64,000 nucleotides of DNA from Erythrobacteraceae bacterium. GTDB taxonomy: Bacteria; Pseudomonadota; Alphaproteobacteria; Sphingomonadales; Sphingomonadaceae. Below the pieces are notes generated by a model that did no database searches, was not told the DNA's origin, and saw only the letters and a list, made by a program, of their open reading frames with translations. A program made the position numbers and the translations under genes. The stretch spans positions 1 through 64,000 of the forward strand of contig CANJYE010000009.1 in assembly GCA_947479055.1 (NCBI GenBank). The letters are read 5' to 3'. Positions 4,817-48,013 of this stretch are shown here, in pieces. Within the stretch, counting starts at the first letter, position 1, and each line of letters starts with the position of its first letter.

Positions 4817-5140
4817 TCATTCGGTGGCAATTTGGGCAGCCAGCCCGTCGAGCTGGGTCGTAAGGGTGATCTGGCAGGCCAGGCGGCTGCGCTCGCGCCG
4901 TGGGCTGCCGAAATAGAGTGTGTTTGCTTCCATCGCGGAAGGCAGGCCGACCCGCTCAAACCATTCCGGCGCGATTTCGACATGGCAGGTCGCGCAGGCG
5001 CAACTTCCACCGCAGGTGCCCAGAATGCCTGGCACATGGTGTTCGACCGCCGCTTCCATCAGGGTCTGGCCGATGGCGGCCTCGACGACATGGTCGGTGC
5101 CGTCGCGGCCGAGGAAAGTCACGCGGATCGTCCGGTCCAC
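4817..5140 (-). CDS. [2Fe-2S] ferredoxin, adrenodoxin type
   Basis: About 107 residues. The cluster motif GTCGGSCACATC has the Cys-x5-Cys-x2-Cys spacing of vertebrate/bacterial adrenodoxin-type ferredoxins, with the fourth cysteine in RLACQIT. It would carry electrons to the Rieske oxygenase of the same operon or to one of the P450s; no ferredoxin reductase is visible in the window. Start set at GTG 5140, 5 bases after the upstream stop, because the fold begins at TIRVTFLGRDG. The frame is open further upstream within the SRPBCC gene. Confidence 0.85.
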   Translation of the reverse strand: MDRTIRVTFLGRDGTDHVVEAAIGQTLMEAAVEHHVPGILGTCGGSCACATCHVEIAPEWFERVGLPSAMEANTLYFGSPRRERSRLACQITLTTQLDGLAAQIATE

Positions 5141-40653: not shown

Positions 40654-42299
40654 CCGACCGGAATTTCATGATTGTCGGCAGCGGCGTGGCCGGGCTGGTC
40701 GGCGCGGTCACTGCCGCCGCTGCCGGATTGCGTCCGGTCATCATCGAGAAGAGCGACCTGTGGGGCGGGACCACGGCCTTGTCGGGCGGGGTGGTGTGGG
40801 CCCCTGGCAACGATCTGATGGCGCGCGATGGTCAGTCGGATTCGCCGGAAACCGCGCGCGACTATGTGCTCAATCTCCTCGGCAACGATCCTTCCGCCCG
40901 CCGCCGCGCCAAGGTGGACCGCTTCCTGGAAGCGGTGCCGCAGATGGTGCGCGATCTGGCCGGGCAGGGGATCGACTGGATCCGCAACCCCGACCACCCG
41001 GACTACTACCCGCTGGTGCCCGGATCGGACGTTGGCCGGACGATCGAGCCGGCCGTGATCGATGGCAACCGGCTGGGGCCGGACATGGCCACCATGCGCG
41101 GCATGTCGGCGGGCTTCCCGCAGATGCCGACCAGCCAGATGGGCGTGTTCTCGCGGATGAAGACCGGGCCGAAGCCGTTGTTCGGCGCGCTCTCGATCCT
41201 GGCCCGCAACAAGCTGTGGCGGATGACCGGGCGCGAACCGCTGTCGCGCGGGCGGGCGCTCCTGGCCTGGCTGATGCTGGCGGCGCGGAGGAAAGGCATC
41301 CCGCTGTTGCTGCAAGCGCGGCTGGTCGATCTGGAGCTGGTGGATAGCCGGGTGGCGCGCGCGGTGATCGAAACGCCGCAGGGCCGCGAGGTACTGGAGG
41401 TTCCGGCGGGCGTGCTGCTGGCCGCGGGCGGCTTCGGCCACAATCCCGAACTGCGCCGCAAATATCACGGCGATCTCGACGGCAGCTGGAGCAGCGCCCC
41501 ACCTTCGGACGAGGGCGACGGGTTGCTGATCGCCACAAGGCTGGGCGCGGCGGTGGAGTTCATCGAACATGCCTGGTGGCAGCCCACTCTGATGATCGCG
41601 CCGGGCCAGCCCAGCCTGACCCTGGCGGAACGGGCGATGCCCGGCAGCATCATCGTCGACAGCAAGGGCCAGCGCTTCATGAACGAGGCGCAGTCCTACA
41701 TGGCGGCAGGGGAGGCCCTGCGCGAACATGGCCGGAAGAACGGGGGCGGGGCCAACTGGCTGCTGTTCGACCAGCGCTTTCTCGATCGCTATGTCTTCCG
41801 GGTGCTGTCCTACAAGGCCACCCGCGCTTCGATGATGCGCCACGGCTATCTCAAATCCGCGCCCAGCCTGGCGGCGCTGGCGGGCGAATGCGGGATTGAC
41901 CCGGCAACGCTGCGCCAGACGGTCGATCGCTTCAACGCATTCGCGCGCGAGGGGCACGACTCAGATTTCCAGCGGGGCGAGACCAATTACGATCGCTACT
42001 GGGCCGATCCCGCCAACCGCCCCAACCCCTGCCTGGGCGAAATCGCACGCGGCCCGTTCTACGCCGCGCGGGTGTTCGATGGCGATATCGGCACCAATGG
42101 CGGGGTGATGACCGACCGGCATTCGCGCGTGCTGAAGGACGACGAAACCCCGATCCCCGGCCTCTACGCCGCCGGCAATTGCAGCGGTTCACCCTTCGGC
42201 GGCACTTATCCGGGCGGCGGCGCCACTATCGGCGCGGCGGCGGTGTTCGGCTATCTGGCGGCGCGGCACGCAGCGGGGATCGACGCTCCTACAGCATGA
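40650..42299 (+). CDS. KstD-like FAD-dependent dehydrogenase
   Basis: 549 residues. FAD-binding FMIVGSGVAGLVGAVTAAAA and EKSDLWGGTTALSGGVVWAP, middle VLLAAGGFGHNPELRR, and C-terminal GGTYPGGGATIGAAAVFGYL with Tyr520 in the KstD catalytic position. No signal peptide. Start set at ATG 40650 (ATGA overlap with the synthetase). Last gene of the P450 operon; the order suggests desaturation of a ring CoA thioester or ketone. Its 3' end overlaps the convergent RTX gene by 11 bases. Confidence 0.83.
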   Translation: MTDRNFMIVGSGVAGLVGAVTAAAAGLRPVIIEKSDLWGGTTALSGGVVWAPGNDLMARDGQSDSPETARDYVLNLLGNDPSARRRAKVDRFLEAVPQMVRDLAGQGIDWIRNPDHPDYYPLVPGSDVGRTIEPAVIDGNRLGPDMATMRGMSAGFPQMPTSQMGVFSRMKTGPKPLFGALSILARNKLWRMTGREPLSRGRALLAWLMLAARRKGIPLLLQARLVDLELVDSRVARAVIETPQGREVLEVPAGVLLAAGGFGHNPELRRKYHGDLDGSWSSAPPSDEGDGLLIATRLGAAVEFIEHAWWQPTLMIAPGQPSLTLAERAMPGSIIVDSKGQRFMNEAQSYMAAGEALREHGRKNGGGANWLLFDQRFLDRYVFRVLSYKATRASMMRHGYLKSAPSLAALAGECGIDPATLRQTVDRFNAFAREGHDSDFQRGETNYDRYWADPANRPNPCLGEIARGPFYAARVFDGDIGTNGGVMTDRHSRVLKDDETPIPGLYAAGNCSGSPFGGTYPGGGATIGAAAVFGYLAARHAAGIDAPTA

Positions 42300-45210
42300 A
42301 GTCGGCGGCCTGGACGCTGGCGACATTCACCAGCTGGAATTCGAAATCGGCAGTGGTGTCTCCGCTGACATCGCCCCGGACAACCAGATGTGCGCCGGTA
42401 TCCACCACCCAGATCGAGTTGGCGGCCGGGCCGGTGATGGAGAAGGCAAAGGCCTGGTTGTTGGCGGCACCTATATTGGCATCAATCCCGCGCAGGTCGA
42501 TCCGGTCGGTACCGCTGAGAAAATCGCTGACGATATCGCGCTGCGCCCCCGGCGCGCTTTCGGCGGCATCGGCGAAGACGATGATATCGACGGCAGCATC
42601 GACCCCGGCATAGATCACATCCCGGCCTGCGCCGCCGATCAGCCGATCGGCGCCGAGGCCGCCGAGAAGCGTGTCGTTGCCGCCTCCACCTCTGAGGATA
42701 TCGTCGCCGAGTCCACCCCGCAGGATATCATTGTCGCCTCCGCCGGTGATGCCGTCATTCCCCGCACCGCCATGGATATTGTCGCTGCCCATGCCTCCGA
42801 GCAGCGTGTCATTCCCGTCGTCGCCGTAGATAGTGTCTCTACCAAGAAAGCCAGACACTGTGTCATGCCCCCCTCTGCCATGCAGAAGGTCATCCCATTG
42901 GGTGCCGCTGACCAGATCGTCGCCCGAGGTGCCTGTGTCAGGATCGGCGCGGGTAAAAGTGATCTCGATTATCGCGGTGCTCACGTCTCCGTTTACGCCA
43001 ACAGCGCGGTATGTGACTGAATCAGTAACGGACGAACCTATAGACATGCCTGCAAGGACATTTTTTGCGTCTACGGTGTAACTGCCGTCGGCATTCAGCT
43101 GGAACATTGCCCCCGATGACAAGGAAAATGGCGTACCGATCATTGCCGAAGACCCATTTACGCGATCAATGGTCGGAGTACTAAAAATCTGATAAACGTC
43201 GTTATCCAAAACATTTTCGTTGGCTACAGTGGCGTTGACAACGGGCAACGTATCATCGAAAGTGGTAATCGAAATTGGTATATCATTAATAATATCGATT
43301 TTCTGTATAAAAGTTACATTGTTTGTAGGTATCTCCTCGTCAACGATATCATAGTAATCTACGACGACCGCTAAAAAATAGGTTCCTGAAGAAATATCGC
43401 TAGGCAGTCTCACAGTCGCTGAACTGGTAGTGGTCCTGAATTCCCCAGGCGCAATCGTGCCGAATTCGTCAAGATGAATTACGCGGTCATCTGCAGAAAT
43501 AATTGCATCATCGGAGATGATTAATGCATTCTGAAATACGGTCACTCCGTCAGAAAGACGAACGTCAGGAACCGCGTCGTCAGGCGAGAAATTTCCAAAG
43601 TCAGTCGCATATTTGAATAATTTCCCAGCATAAATCGTTGACATTGGTTCACGCGTGTCAGCGTTTAGGATGTGCACCCGTTGAGCGAAGAGATCGGGAA
43701 GAATGTCAGCATCAGGACTGTCGGGAGAAATCAAAAATGATCTCGACCGGATATTATTATCTTCACGTTGTTCGGCCATATCGTTGTTAGGATCGGCCTG
43801 CACAAAGAAGTAGCCAGCCCCGTTCGCAGCTGTATCAGGAACCTGAAGGTCAAGCGCATAGTAGTGCGTGCCCATATAGCCGAGCCCGCGTGCCGTTGTT
43901 GCTTCGTAGAGCACGGTGTCATTTGCGCCCAGAGTCTCGTCCGACGAATAATAGACCCGATACGTATAGGGAACCGATCCATCTGCATCTGCTGAAATCG
44001 TAAAATTCAAAGTGACCGTGCCGCCGATCTTGCTGACGAAACCATCGGGAAATGACGTAATCCCAACCCTCAGGTCCGGGTCGCCTGAGAGGCCTCCGCC
44101 TACCGCAAGGGCGGATGACGAGGCGAGGTTATTGGATTCATTTGCTTCACTGATTGCGTTTGTGGTATCGACGCGAACCCCGACATAGTAGTTCGTACGC
44201 CCAAGATCGACCGGTAGTGTCAGGGTTTCGGTGTAGTGACTCGATGAAAAAGCGCCGCCGGATGCATCCAGCGACGCGATGCTGAAGGTGTCAATCACGC
44301 GAACTGAACCGCTGAAATCCGGCGAACTCGACAGGATAATTTCACCACGTGCCGCCGCAGTGGACTGGTTGCCGATGTTGGCAATATCAAAGCTTACCAC
44401 AATGTCCGAACCGGGCGAGGCTCCTGATGAGCCAAGCCCAACCGAGCCAACTGTCAAATCCGGACCGCTTATGCCACCCAGCAGATCACTTACCGCGTAA
44501 GTGCCGTTGGAGAACTCCACCCTTTCAACATCGGTGATCTTGATCGTGTAGGTGCCGGAATCCGATGAAGCGGCAGCGGAAGTCCGCAATCCGGAGGTCG
44601 GCGGTGTTGAATTTGACGTCAACCAGTAGCCAGGACCAGCGACATCGACCACCTGCCAGTCGGACCGAACGCCCCATACCACGACGGTATCCTGCCCGCC
44701 GCCACCGTCAATCTCCACATTTCGGTATGCCTGTGAGGGAACCACATAGCGCGTGGCGGCGCTGGACGAGCCGACGAAAAGGGTCTGCATGTCGGCAGTC
44801 GTAATGTCAATGACATTGCGCGCGCCATTATCGGCGAGACGCTCCACGTTATAAAGAATGTCCGCTTTGATCGGACCGACCGCACTTGTCGCGATCGAAA
44901 TTGCTGTCGTGGTATCGACACGGTAGAACCAAATCCTGTCGATGCTTTCTTGGTATTCAACGGTATCTATTCCAGTTCGTCCGTTAATTATGTCGTCTCC
45001 GGCAATTGGTAGGATCCAGTCGTTCGACGGCCCACGCAGGTCGCCGTAAATCGTCCCCGGATTGATGATATTTCCATAATATGGCGGTGATCCGGGCTCG
45101 TAGGTTGGTGTTCCCGCATCGGTGCCGAAGGTTCCGATCTGGAGGGCGTAAGTGCGAACAATATCATTGATGTTCATGGTGGGAGAAAGCGTCCCATCCG
45201 TTCGAACCAA
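42289..45210 (-). pseudogene. RTX exoprotein, downstream part of a frameshifted M23-CARDB-RTX gene
   Basis: A 973-residue frame with three CARDB-like beta-sandwich domains (about 250-370, 378-495, 505-640), a VCBS/cadherin-like repeat (ending around 750), about ten calcium-binding RTX nonapeptides (about 757-865; GGxGxDxLxGG such as GGAGNDGITGG) and a serralysin-type C-terminal domain. RTX proteins leave by type I secretion through the C-terminus, so no signal peptide is expected. No RBS precedes ATG 45177 or TTG 45210. Upstream in the same frame lies DYENHLHLTVL, the missing end of the M23 domain. Adding one base restores a single protein of about 1,103 residues from 45599. Confidence 0.75.
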
Positions 45211-45230
45211 TCCGGCCGCCTGAAGTCCAC

Positions 45231-45599
45231 CTAATACCGTGAGGTGAAGGTGGTTTTCGTAGTCCCCCCCGTCGCGCCAACATCGCCGATATGTTGGCCC
45301 GCTGTTACAGGAGCGCCCGCGGTCAAAAGTGGAGGGCCCTGCAAGTGTGCAAATAGCGAAAACCTGTCGATCAAGTTTCCGACATTGTCCTTATGCTGAA
45401 TGATGATCGCGTAGCCATACCCGTTCCCCGTCGATTGAGACGAAGTTGAGGCAAAGACAACCTTCCCGTTCGCAATTGAGGAAACGTCAGTTCCGGCCGA
45501 TGCTGAAATGTCGATCCCGTAGTGGAATGGTGCGCTTGCCACATCTCCATAATGCCCAAAATTCTCAACAAGGGTTCCGTTCACCGGCAATCTGAGCAT
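45231..45599 (-). pseudogene. M23 metallopeptidase domain, upstream part of the frameshifted gene
   Basis: Frame from ATG 45599 (AGAAGG upstream) to a stop at 45231-45233. VNGTLVENFGHYGD opens, and FHYGIDISASAGTDV supplies the HxxxD zinc ligands (His26, Asp30), with LFAHLQGPP a further His. The frame then runs into GDVGATGGTTKTTF and stops. In the frame one base over, the same DNA reads GGDYENHLHLTV, the HxH end of M23/LytM domains. So the peptidase lost its last zinc ligand through a one-base deletion in the G/C run at 45264. Alternatively a sequencing error or phase-variable state. Confidence 0.72.
45264..45270 (-). repeat. Homopolymer (7 C on +, 7 G on coding strand) at the frameshift
   Basis: Seven G in the coding strand exactly where the M23 and RTX frames part. 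Eight G would join them. Such runs are prone to slippage during replication and to base-calling error. Confidence 0.8.
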
Positions 45600-45910: not shown

Positions 45911-47176
45911 TTACAGCACCTCGCCCCTTGCCGGTTCCTTCTTTACCGGGAACTTGTCGTAGTAGAACTGGAACCGCTCGCGCAGTTCGCCCACGTTTAC
46001 GCCGAATTTGGGCAGATCATACTGCACCGCGCCATGGCGGCCGCGCTGGTTGGCTTCGAGGTAGGCGGTGATGCGGGCTTCGGCTTCGGGGGTCAGTTCG
46101 AGGTCGGCGGTGCGGTAGATCCGTTCCACCAGCCCGCGCTGGTCGGCCATGTATTCGTGGAAGATCACGTCGACGATCTGGTTCTGCGGCAGCCTGTCAT
46201 GATCTCGCACGGCGGCGCGGAGCATTTCCTCGATCCGCCAGGTCCACAGCTTCGCAAGGCCGGGCAGGTCCTGCTCGGTGCGGCGGATGCGGTCCCAATA
46301 GGCCAGCAGGGTCAGCGCGGACTGCATCACCGCGATCGGATCGCGATGGGTGATGATGACGGTGGCATCGGGGAAGACATTGTGCAGCGGCACCAGGTTC
46401 TCCATGTGCGGCGGCGATTTGGAAACCCAGCGGTTGGGCCCGCGCATCCAGGTCAAGGCCTGCAGCGCCTTCTTCTCGTAGCGGTAGTGCGGGGTCTGGT
46501 CATGCTGCTGGTAATAGCGCGCCCAGTTCGGCATGCGGGCGCGCCATTCGATCGCGTAGGAGCTGAAGTCGATGCTCTGGAACTCGATGTTCTCATGGAC
46601 ATGATCGGGGTCCATCTCGTGGATCGCGTTCATGTGCGGCAGGACCTGCCTGAACATCGACCACATCTCCTTGGTCATGGTGTAGCGCGGGCTCTGCTCG
46701 ATCGGCCCTGGCTCCTCGCCGGGGAGCGGGAAAGGCATCATCGTTTCCCACAACTGGGCGGAACGCAGGCGCGGGTCGGCGGCGAGCATGTTGACGAGGT
46801 GCGTGGTGCCCGAACGCGGCAGGCCCGCGATCATCAGCGGCCGGTCGATCTTCACGTCGAGGATTTCGGGGTGGAGCGTGACCGCGTTTTCGAGGTTGAG
46901 GCGGTTGATGGCATAGACCATCATCTGTTCCCACGCCTGCTGGCGGCCGATGGTGTGGAGGCCGCGATCGGCGTTGATATCATCGACCCACAGCTGGATC
47001 CGTTCCATGAAGTCCAGCGATCCGAAGTCGCTGAGGCCGGTGGCGGCTCTGGCCGCGCCAAGGATGGCCTCGACGCTCATGTCCACCGGATTGCCGGAAT
47101 CGTAGAACGCCTGTTCCGCTTCGTTGCGGATCGGCTTGTCGAGATCGTCGAGGTAGATCTTCTGCACTTCGCTCAT
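45911..47176 (-). CDS. Sulfotransferase family protein (Sulfotransfer_3)
   Basis: 421 residues. The 5'-phosphosulfate-binding loop appears as MIAGLPRSGTTHLVNMLA and the 3'-phosphate-binding helix as TVIITHRDPIAVMQSALTLL; WVSKSPPHMENL lies between. The N-terminal 100 residues precede the kinase-like fold, as in other long members common in actinobacteria and sphingomonads. Predicted PAPS-dependent transfer of sulfate to a hydroxylated small molecule or lipid; the acceptor is unknown. Co-transcribed with the SDR upstream, 14 bases apart. Confidence 0.82.
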   Translation of the reverse strand: MSEVQKIYLDDLDKPIRNEAEQAFYDSGNPVDMSVEAILGAARAATGLSDFGSLDFMERIQLWVDDINADRGLHTIGRQQAWEQMMVYAINRLNLENAVTLHPEILDVKIDRPLMIAGLPRSGTTHLVNMLAADPRLRSAQLWETMMPFPLPGEEPGPIEQSPRYTMTKEMWSMFRQVLPHMNAIHEMDPDHVHENIEFQSIDFSSYAIEWRARMPNWARYYQQHDQTPHYRYEKKALQALTWMRGPNRWVSKSPPHMENLVPLHNVFPDATVIITHRDPIAVMQSALTLLAYWDRIRRTEQDLPGLAKLWTWRIEEMLRAAVRDHDRLPQNQIVDVIFHEYMADQRGLVERIYRTADLELTPEAEARITAYLEANQRGRHGAVQYDLPKFGVNVGELRERFQFYYDKFPVKKEPARGEVL

Positions 47177-47190
47177 TCCAACTTCTCCCC

Positions 47191-47955
47191 TCAGCCCATG
47201 ATCGTATAGCCGCCATCGACGGCGATCGCCTGGCCGGTCAGCCAGGCCGCCGCGCCGCTGGTGACAAACAGCACTACGCCGTTGACCTCGTCCGGCACGC
47301 CGTGGCGGCCTAGCGGGGTGCGGGCGAGGTGAGGCACCGAAAATTCCGGATCGGACAGCACCGGGCCGGTCATCCGGGTCCAGGTTGTGCCGGCCGAGAC
47401 AACGTTGACGCGGATGTTGTGCTTGCCCCAGGCCACCGCCAGCGTGCGGGTGAGGCCGAGCAGTCCGGTCTTGGCCGGGCCGTAGCCGGGGATGATCTCC
47501 AGCCCGAAATAGGAGCCGAGCGAGCCCATGCCCACCACCGAAGCCCCGCCCGGCAGCTTGCTCTGCGCCAGCTTGTCGCGGCAGCGCACGGCCATGCGCT
47601 GGCCGCTGAACAGGTGGATGGCGAGCGCGCGCTCGAAATTATCGGGCTCCATCTCGTCCAGCCCCTGCGCGCCCAGCATGCCGCCGGCGTTGTTGATCAG
47701 GATGTCGAGCTTCGGGATCGCGGCGGCGATGGAGTCAATCTGGGCGCGGTTTTCGACATCGAGCTGGAAGTAGCGATAGCCAGATAAATCATCGTCATAT
47801 TCGGATGGGGAGCCGCGCGTGCCGGTGATGATCACATCGGCCCCGGCCTCGCGATAGGCTTCGGCAATCGCCTTGCCGAGCCCGGCGGTCGCGCCGGTGA
47901 CGAGCACCGAGGCGCCCGAATAATCATATGCCACATTGGACCAGCGTCCTGCCAT
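47191..47955 (-). CDS. SDR-family oxidoreductase
   Basis: 254 residues. SVLVTGATAGLGKAIAEAY, LDILINNAGG, Ser in VVGMGSLGS and YGPAK give a complete classical SDR active site; WLTGQAIAVDGGYTIMG ends the fold. NAD(P)-dependent alcohol/ketone interconversion. First gene of the pair with the sulfotransferase, so a hydroxyl made or consumed here may be the sulfation site (inference). A perfect palindrome lies 60 bases upstream (48014). Confidence 0.83.
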   Translation of the reverse strand: MAGRWSNVAYDYSGASVLVTGATAGLGKAIAEAYREAGADVIITGTRGSPSEYDDDLSGYRYFQLDVENRAQIDSIAAAIPKLDILINNAGGMLGAQGLDEMEPDNFERALAIHLFSGQRMAVRCRDKLAQSKLPGGASVVGMGSLGSYFGLEIIPGYGPAKTGLLGLTRTLAVAWGKHNIRVNVVSAGTTWTRMTGPVLSDPEFSVPHLARTPLGRHGVPDEVNGVVLFVTSGAAAWLTGQAIAVDGGYTIMG

Positions 47956-48013
47956 CGTGCCTCTCCCATTCGATCGGTCCCGGTTCGAACCCTAGACGCC
48001 AGATTCGCAGATC

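What the first reader, a model, noticed from the sequence alone, without database searches (positions are those of the whole stretch)
42289..45599. M23-CARDB-RTX secreted protein broken by one base in a 7-base homopolymer
The M23 frame (45599 to 45231) carries the HxxxD zinc motif but stops before the HxH. The RTX frame (42289-45210) has no RBS at its starts, and in its upstream extension reads DYENHLHLTV. The two frames meet exactly at the 7-C run 45264-45270; one added base gives GATGGDYENHLHL and a single protein of about 1,103 residues. An RTX exoprotein that begins with a cell-wall/murein-type peptidase is an uncommon architecture, and the run could act as an on/off switch.
Basis: partly seen in the sequence, partly recalled or inferred. 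Interest (0 to 1): 0.7.

Follow-up and report, generated by a model that had tools for sequence, protein, structure and literature searches.

The report
Secreted peptidase gene split at G-tract
In an environmental bacterium, one gene for a secreted protein that pairs a cell-wall-cutting enzyme with a calcium-binding export tail reads out of frame at a run of seven Gs; this is probably a real one-base slip at an error-prone tract, but nothing here shows that the cell uses it as a switch.

Summary
On the minus strand an M23 peptidase frame (ATG 45599, good Shine-Dalgarno) loses its domain at a 7-G tract (45264-45270) before the HxH motif, and the RTX frame, open upstream to 45390, supplies DYENHLHL at the matching place. 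Read through, the Pfam M23 score rises from 60.3 to 67.4 bits. Both pieces share a composition (GC 53-54%, GC3 0.58) unlike 26 neighbouring genes (GC3 0.71-0.87). I conclude there is one gene of about 1,103 codons.

Two corrections. The RTX frame does have a ribosome-site-like AGGCGG before TTG 45210, so a separate RTX product is possible. And as written the tract is an in-frame G_GGG_GGG heptamer, so -1 recoding is a rival, though a poor one.

New evidence: of G/C runs of 7 or more in this genome, 34 lie in-frame inside Pfam-recognised genes. Only three break a frame: this gene, a second RTX gene and a polysaccharide flippase. That argues against random miscounts and for real indels in dispensable surface genes, but does not separate switching from decay. 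No relative was found in 401 family and 385 class genomes, so conservation could not be tested.

The parts
45231..45599 (-). M23 peptidase frame as written: 122 residues, HxxxD present, HxH absent, ends at TAG 45233-45231
   Evidence: Pfam PF01551 positions 2-80 of 96, 60.3 bits
45600..45612 (-). Shine-Dalgarno-like AGAGAAGG just before ATG 45599
   Evidence: Direct reading; 5 of 6 to AGGAGG
45264..45270 (-). 7-G tract where the two frames meet; 0-frame codons ACG GGG GGG, i.e. heptamer G_GGG_GGG
45234..45390 (-). Stretch open in both frames; the RTX frame here holds DYENHLHLTV right after the tract
   Evidence: Pfam M23 extends to 2-87 of 96, 67.4 bits on read-through
42289..45210 (-). RTX frame from TTG 45210: 973 residues with a CARDB domain, RTX nonapeptide repeats and a serralysin-type (M10_C) C-terminus
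45211..45222 (-). AGGCGG-containing ribosome-site-like sequence before TTG 45210

Best explanation
This is one gene for a type-I-secreted exoprotein: an N-terminal M23 (murein-endopeptidase-type) domain, then CARDB adhesin-like domains, then RTX repeats and a C-terminal export signal. In the sequenced genome it is out of frame by one base at a 7-G tract, most likely through a real slipped-strand indel there. The out-of-frame allele should make a 122-residue M23 stub that lacks the HxH residues and export tail, plus at most a weakly initiated RTX-only protein. Such a slip is reversible in principle, so the locus could act as a switch; whether it does is inferred, not shown. Shown: the sequence, the domains, the shared composition and the genome-wide control. 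Inferred: the indel's origin, secretion, and murein as substrate.
For: M23 profile match stops at the tract and continues in the other frame (60.3 to 67.4 bits, positions 2-80 to 2-87). On read-through, HxxxD and HLH align with solved M23 enzymes such as zoocin A. Both pieces share GC 53-54% and GC3 0.58; 26 neighbours have GC3 0.71-0.87, other RTX genes of the genome 0.65-0.77. About 970 downstream codons are still open, so the break is recent or tolerated. Of the G/C runs of 7 or more, 34 lie in-frame in Pfam-recognised genes (FtsZ, trigger factor, MraY, peptidyl-tRNA hydrolase and others), while the 3 breaks are two RTX genes and a polysaccharide flippase. A PrtD-type exporter is over its cut-off at C1:98527-100155. 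7-bp poly-G tracts are known reversible indel sites, e.g. glpK of M. tuberculosis (PMC11898584).
Against: No orthologue was found, so intact length and conservation are untested. No reads were available. The sequencing method is unknown, so a miscount at this one run stays possible. mutS is present, which lowers the expected slip rate. The surface-gene enrichment is a post hoc classification of three cases.
Confidence: 0.6

Rival explanations
1. Sequencing or assembly miscount: the real genome carries an intact gene and the tract length is wrong in this assembly.
For: Draft of 94 contigs; homopolymers are the classic error site; singleton frameshifts in known families are often errors (PMC3711429).
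Against: 34 other genes with G/C runs of 7-8 keep their frame, including core genes; all three breaks fall in dispensable surface genes.
Confidence: 0.22
2. Selected phase variation (a special case of the best explanation): tract length changes reversibly and switches the exoprotein, or only its peptidase part, on and off in the population.
For: Tract lies in the first ninth of the gene; a second RTX gene (C79:4895-4901) and a flippase (C49:2829-2836) break at G tracts too; phase-variable genes are mostly surface-exposed (PMC3711429).
Against: Only seven bases; runs of 7-8 G are common in this genome and mostly silent; mutS present; no population data.
Confidence: 0.2
3. Pseudogene (the other special case of the best explanation): a foreign or dispensable gene that has just begun to decay.
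For: Atypical composition, no relatives in the family.
Against: No other stop or frame break in about 970 codons.
Confidence: 0.25
4. Recoding: ribosomes (-1 slip on G_GGG_GGG) or RNA polymerase (slippage) make full-length protein from the sequence as written.
For: The tract is in exact X_XXZ_ZZN register; a stem (CCACCU/AGGUGG) starts 10 nt downstream.
Against: GGN codons are poor slippers in E. coli and G_GG.G_GG.U was the lowest tested motif without stimulator, 0.018% (PMC4066793). The downstream fold is no stronger than shuffles (z -0.10 and -1.14). No SD-like stimulator upstream by eye. The unshifted product would be a dead stub.
Confidence: 0.07
5. Two products by design: an M23 stub and an RTX protein reinitiated at TTG 45210.
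For: AGGCGG before TTG 45210, about 20 nt after the M23 stop.
Against: The stub lacks a zinc ligand and catalytic histidine, and the missing piece lies in the RTX frame.
Confidence: 0.05

Closest known systems
Serralysin-type RTX exoproteins exported by PrtD-type type I secretion
   Same: RTX nonapeptides and M10_C C-terminus; a PrtD exporter in the genome
   Different: The peptidase is M23 at the N-terminus, not a metzincin M10 domain; CARDB domains in between
Secreted M23 endopeptidases (zoocin A, lysostaphin)
   Same: N-terminal M23 domain with HxxxD and HxH on read-through
   Different: These come from Gram-positive bacteria and, from general knowledge, carry cell-wall-binding tails; here a CARDB/RTX tail in a Gram-negative
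Homopolymer contingency loci such as M. tuberculosis glpK (7-bp poly-G)
   Same: Seven-base G tract inside a reading frame with a frame-breaking length (PMC11898584)
   Different: Reversibility and selection are not shown here
RTX bacteriocins of rhizobia and relatives
   Same: RTX-family proteins of Gram-negative bacteria that act on other bacteria (PMC3034196)
   Different: The review text mentions no M23, murein or peptidoglycan

Membership tests
Peptidase family M23 (PF01551) | Profile match over cut-off | tested here: met
   60.3 bits alone, 67.4 on read-through, cut-off 28.7
Peptidase family M23 (PF01551) | HxxxD and HxH metal/catalytic motifs in one polypeptide | tested here: not met
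   HxxxD in the M23 frame, HLH only in the RTX frame as the DNA stands; both present on read-through
RTX / type I secreted proteins | Nonapeptide repeats over cut-off | tested here: met
   PF00353 73.4 bits, cut-off 23
RTX / type I secreted proteins | C-terminal export region shared with other substrates | tested here: met
   PF08548 29.7 bits, cut-off 20.7; 51-56% identity to C-terminal ends at C79, C54, C42, C84
RTX / type I secreted proteins | Secretion by the exporter | not testable with these tools
   Needs a secretome; only the presence of a PrtD exporter was tested
RTX toxins / haemolysins | Match to toxin family models over cut-off | tested here: not met
   Only the repeat region matches, 67.1 bits against a cut-off of 1000
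Phase-variable (contingency) locus | Homopolymer inside the frame with a frame-breaking length | tested here: met
   7-G tract at the frame break
Phase-variable (contingency) locus | Length variation in the population and reversibility | not testable with these tools
   No reads or strains available
Programmed -1 frameshift | Slippery heptamer in register | tested here: met
   G_GGG_GGG
Programmed -1 frameshift | Downstream stimulator stronger than chance | tested here: not met
   z -0.10 and -1.14
Programmed -1 frameshift | Conservation of the frame transition in relatives | tested here: inconclusive
   No relatives found

The most novel reading that the evidence does not exclude
A free-living sphingomonad-like bacterium uses short G tracts as contingency switches for several secreted or surface components (two RTX exoproteins and a polysaccharide flippase), one of them a type-I-secreted M23 murein peptidase of a new layout.
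Probability: 0.15. Interest if true: 0.6.

Novelty: new variant of a known kind. Interest (0 to 1): 0.34.

Why it matters
If the layout is real, it is a murein-type peptidase sent out of a Gram-negative cell by type I secretion with a calcium-dependent tail, a plausible weapon or wall-remodelling enzyme. If the tract varies, it would extend poly-G contingency loci to an environmental alphaproteobacterium. If it is only an indel or an error, it is a routine annotation correction: two reported genes are one.

Tried and rejected
Direct homologue comparison: none found in 401 family genomes (M23 at E 1e-10; RTX-frame N-terminal part at 1e-6), 385 class genomes, phages or viral contigs; plasmid hits cover only generic M23, RTX, M10_C or CARDB parts.

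Class-level M23 hits in long open frames (up to 3,528 codons) looked like the same layout. Twelve such loci were read: none shows an N-terminal M23 followed by RTX repeats; in most the M23 domain lies towards the C-terminal end of a longer protein.

Genome-contig M23 relatives are distant, many from actinobacteria and Defluviitaleaceae; they were not examined for layout.

Candidate frame breaks at other G runs that turned out to be gene starts, gene ends or non-coding on reading the translations: L112, L134, L146, L160, L162, and probably L093, L172, L182.

Defence-system membership: no PADLOC match. RNA families near the gene: none. Searches were input errors.

Full report
What is there. On the minus strand, ATG 45599 follows AGAGAAGG and opens a frame of 122 residues that ends at the TAG at 45233-45231. 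It matches Peptidase_M23 at 60.3 bits, profile positions 2-80 of 96, with HxxxD but no HxH. At 45264-45270 lies a run of seven G. The RTX frame is open upstream to 45390; its TTG 45210 product is 973 residues with CARDB, RTX repeats and an M10_C C-terminus. Just after the run this frame reads DYENHLHLTVLGG.

One gene. Read through as a protein for searching only, the M23 match extends to position 87 and 67.4 bits. The HLH falls opposite the conserved HLH of solved M23 proteins such as zoocin A. The 7-G run is the only homopolymer longer than four in the 160-base overlap of the open frames. Both pieces have GC 53-54% and GC3 0.58, whereas 26 neighbouring genes have GC3 0.71-0.87 and other RTX genes of this genome 0.65-0.77. 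I take this as one gene of about 1,103 codons, of atypical and possibly foreign origin.

Correction. TTG 45210 is preceded by AGGCGG-CCGGA. It may be chance, but an RTX-only protein could still be made and exported in the out-of-frame state. If so, tract length would change the peptidase more than the tail.

Is the run length trustworthy? The genome has 64 runs of exactly seven G/C and about twenty of eight or more. I took about 3 kb around each and scored coding frames on both sides with a codon model trained on 26 window genes. In 39 cases one open frame spans the run, and 34 of these match a Pfam family, among them FtsZ, MraY, trigger factor, peptidyl-tRNA hydrolase and a CoaBC-type flavoprotein. 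Three runs break a frame: this one; C79:4895-4901 in an RTX gene with repeats on both sides; and the 8-G run at C49:2829-2836 in a polysaccharide flippase. Random miscounts should hit core genes too. If four to eight of the 37 genes are counted as surface or envelope genes, the chance that all three breaks fall among them is 0.0005 to 0.007. This is a post hoc grouping of three cases, and dispensable genes also decay first, so it favours real indels over miscounts but does not show switching. The remaining runs lie between genes, at gene edges or in stretches the codon model could not call, so a few further breaks could be hidden there.

Mechanism. The most likely event is a slipped-strand indel at the tract. 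Seven-base poly-G tracts are known reversible indel sites, e.g. glpK of M. tuberculosis (PMC11898584), and phase-variable genes are mostly surface-exposed (PMC3711429). Against a strong switch: the tract is short, similar runs are common and silent here, and mutS is present. Recoding is possible in register, since the 0-frame reads ACG GGG GGG, but G-only heptamers are poor in E. coli (PMC4066793) and the downstream fold is no stronger than shuffles.

Function (inferred). The C-terminal end is 51-56% identical to those at C79, C54, C42 and C84, and a PrtD-type exporter is present. I infer type I secretion of an M23 enzyme that cuts murein or peptide cross-links, with CARDB and calcium-folded repeats as carrier and adhesive parts. 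Matches to RTX toxin models are confined to the repeats and far below cut-off.

Comparison. No relative with this layout was found in the family, class, phage or viral searches; the genome-contig M23 hits were not examined for layout. Only one genome of the genus is held. A review of RTX proteins does not mention M23 or peptidoglycan. Absence from these samples is not proof of novelty.

Verdict. The one-gene reading is strong. A real indel is more likely than a miscount. The switch is a testable idea, not a result.

Noticed in passing
L184 (G000:C79:3394-6402), run at record 4895-4901: A second RTX gene of this genome breaks frame at a 7-G run, with RTX repeats on both sides of the break.
   Followed up: partly
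L148 (G000:C49, run at 2829-2836): A polysaccharide flippase (PF13440) breaks frame at an 8-G run, near an ABC exporter at C49:3536-5155.
   Followed up: partly
window 45912-47966 and G000:C71:166-2220: The sulfotransferase and adjacent SDR gene are duplicated at 93% DNA identity on contig C71; the copy ends at the sulfotransferase stop, so the M23-RTX gene lies just outside.
   Followed up: partly
whole genome: Many RTX-type genes (52 matches to the query), several sharing a similar C-terminal end.
   Followed up: no
G000:C1:78462-78475: A run of 14 G, the longest seen, with no clear coding frame around it.
   Followed up: no
G000:C7:70610-71320: An ABC transporter match with an internal TGA, possibly another broken gene.
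   Followed up: no
window 43001-44000: GC falls to 44-49% inside the RTX frame, the lowest of the 38-50 kb stretch profiled.
   Followed up: no
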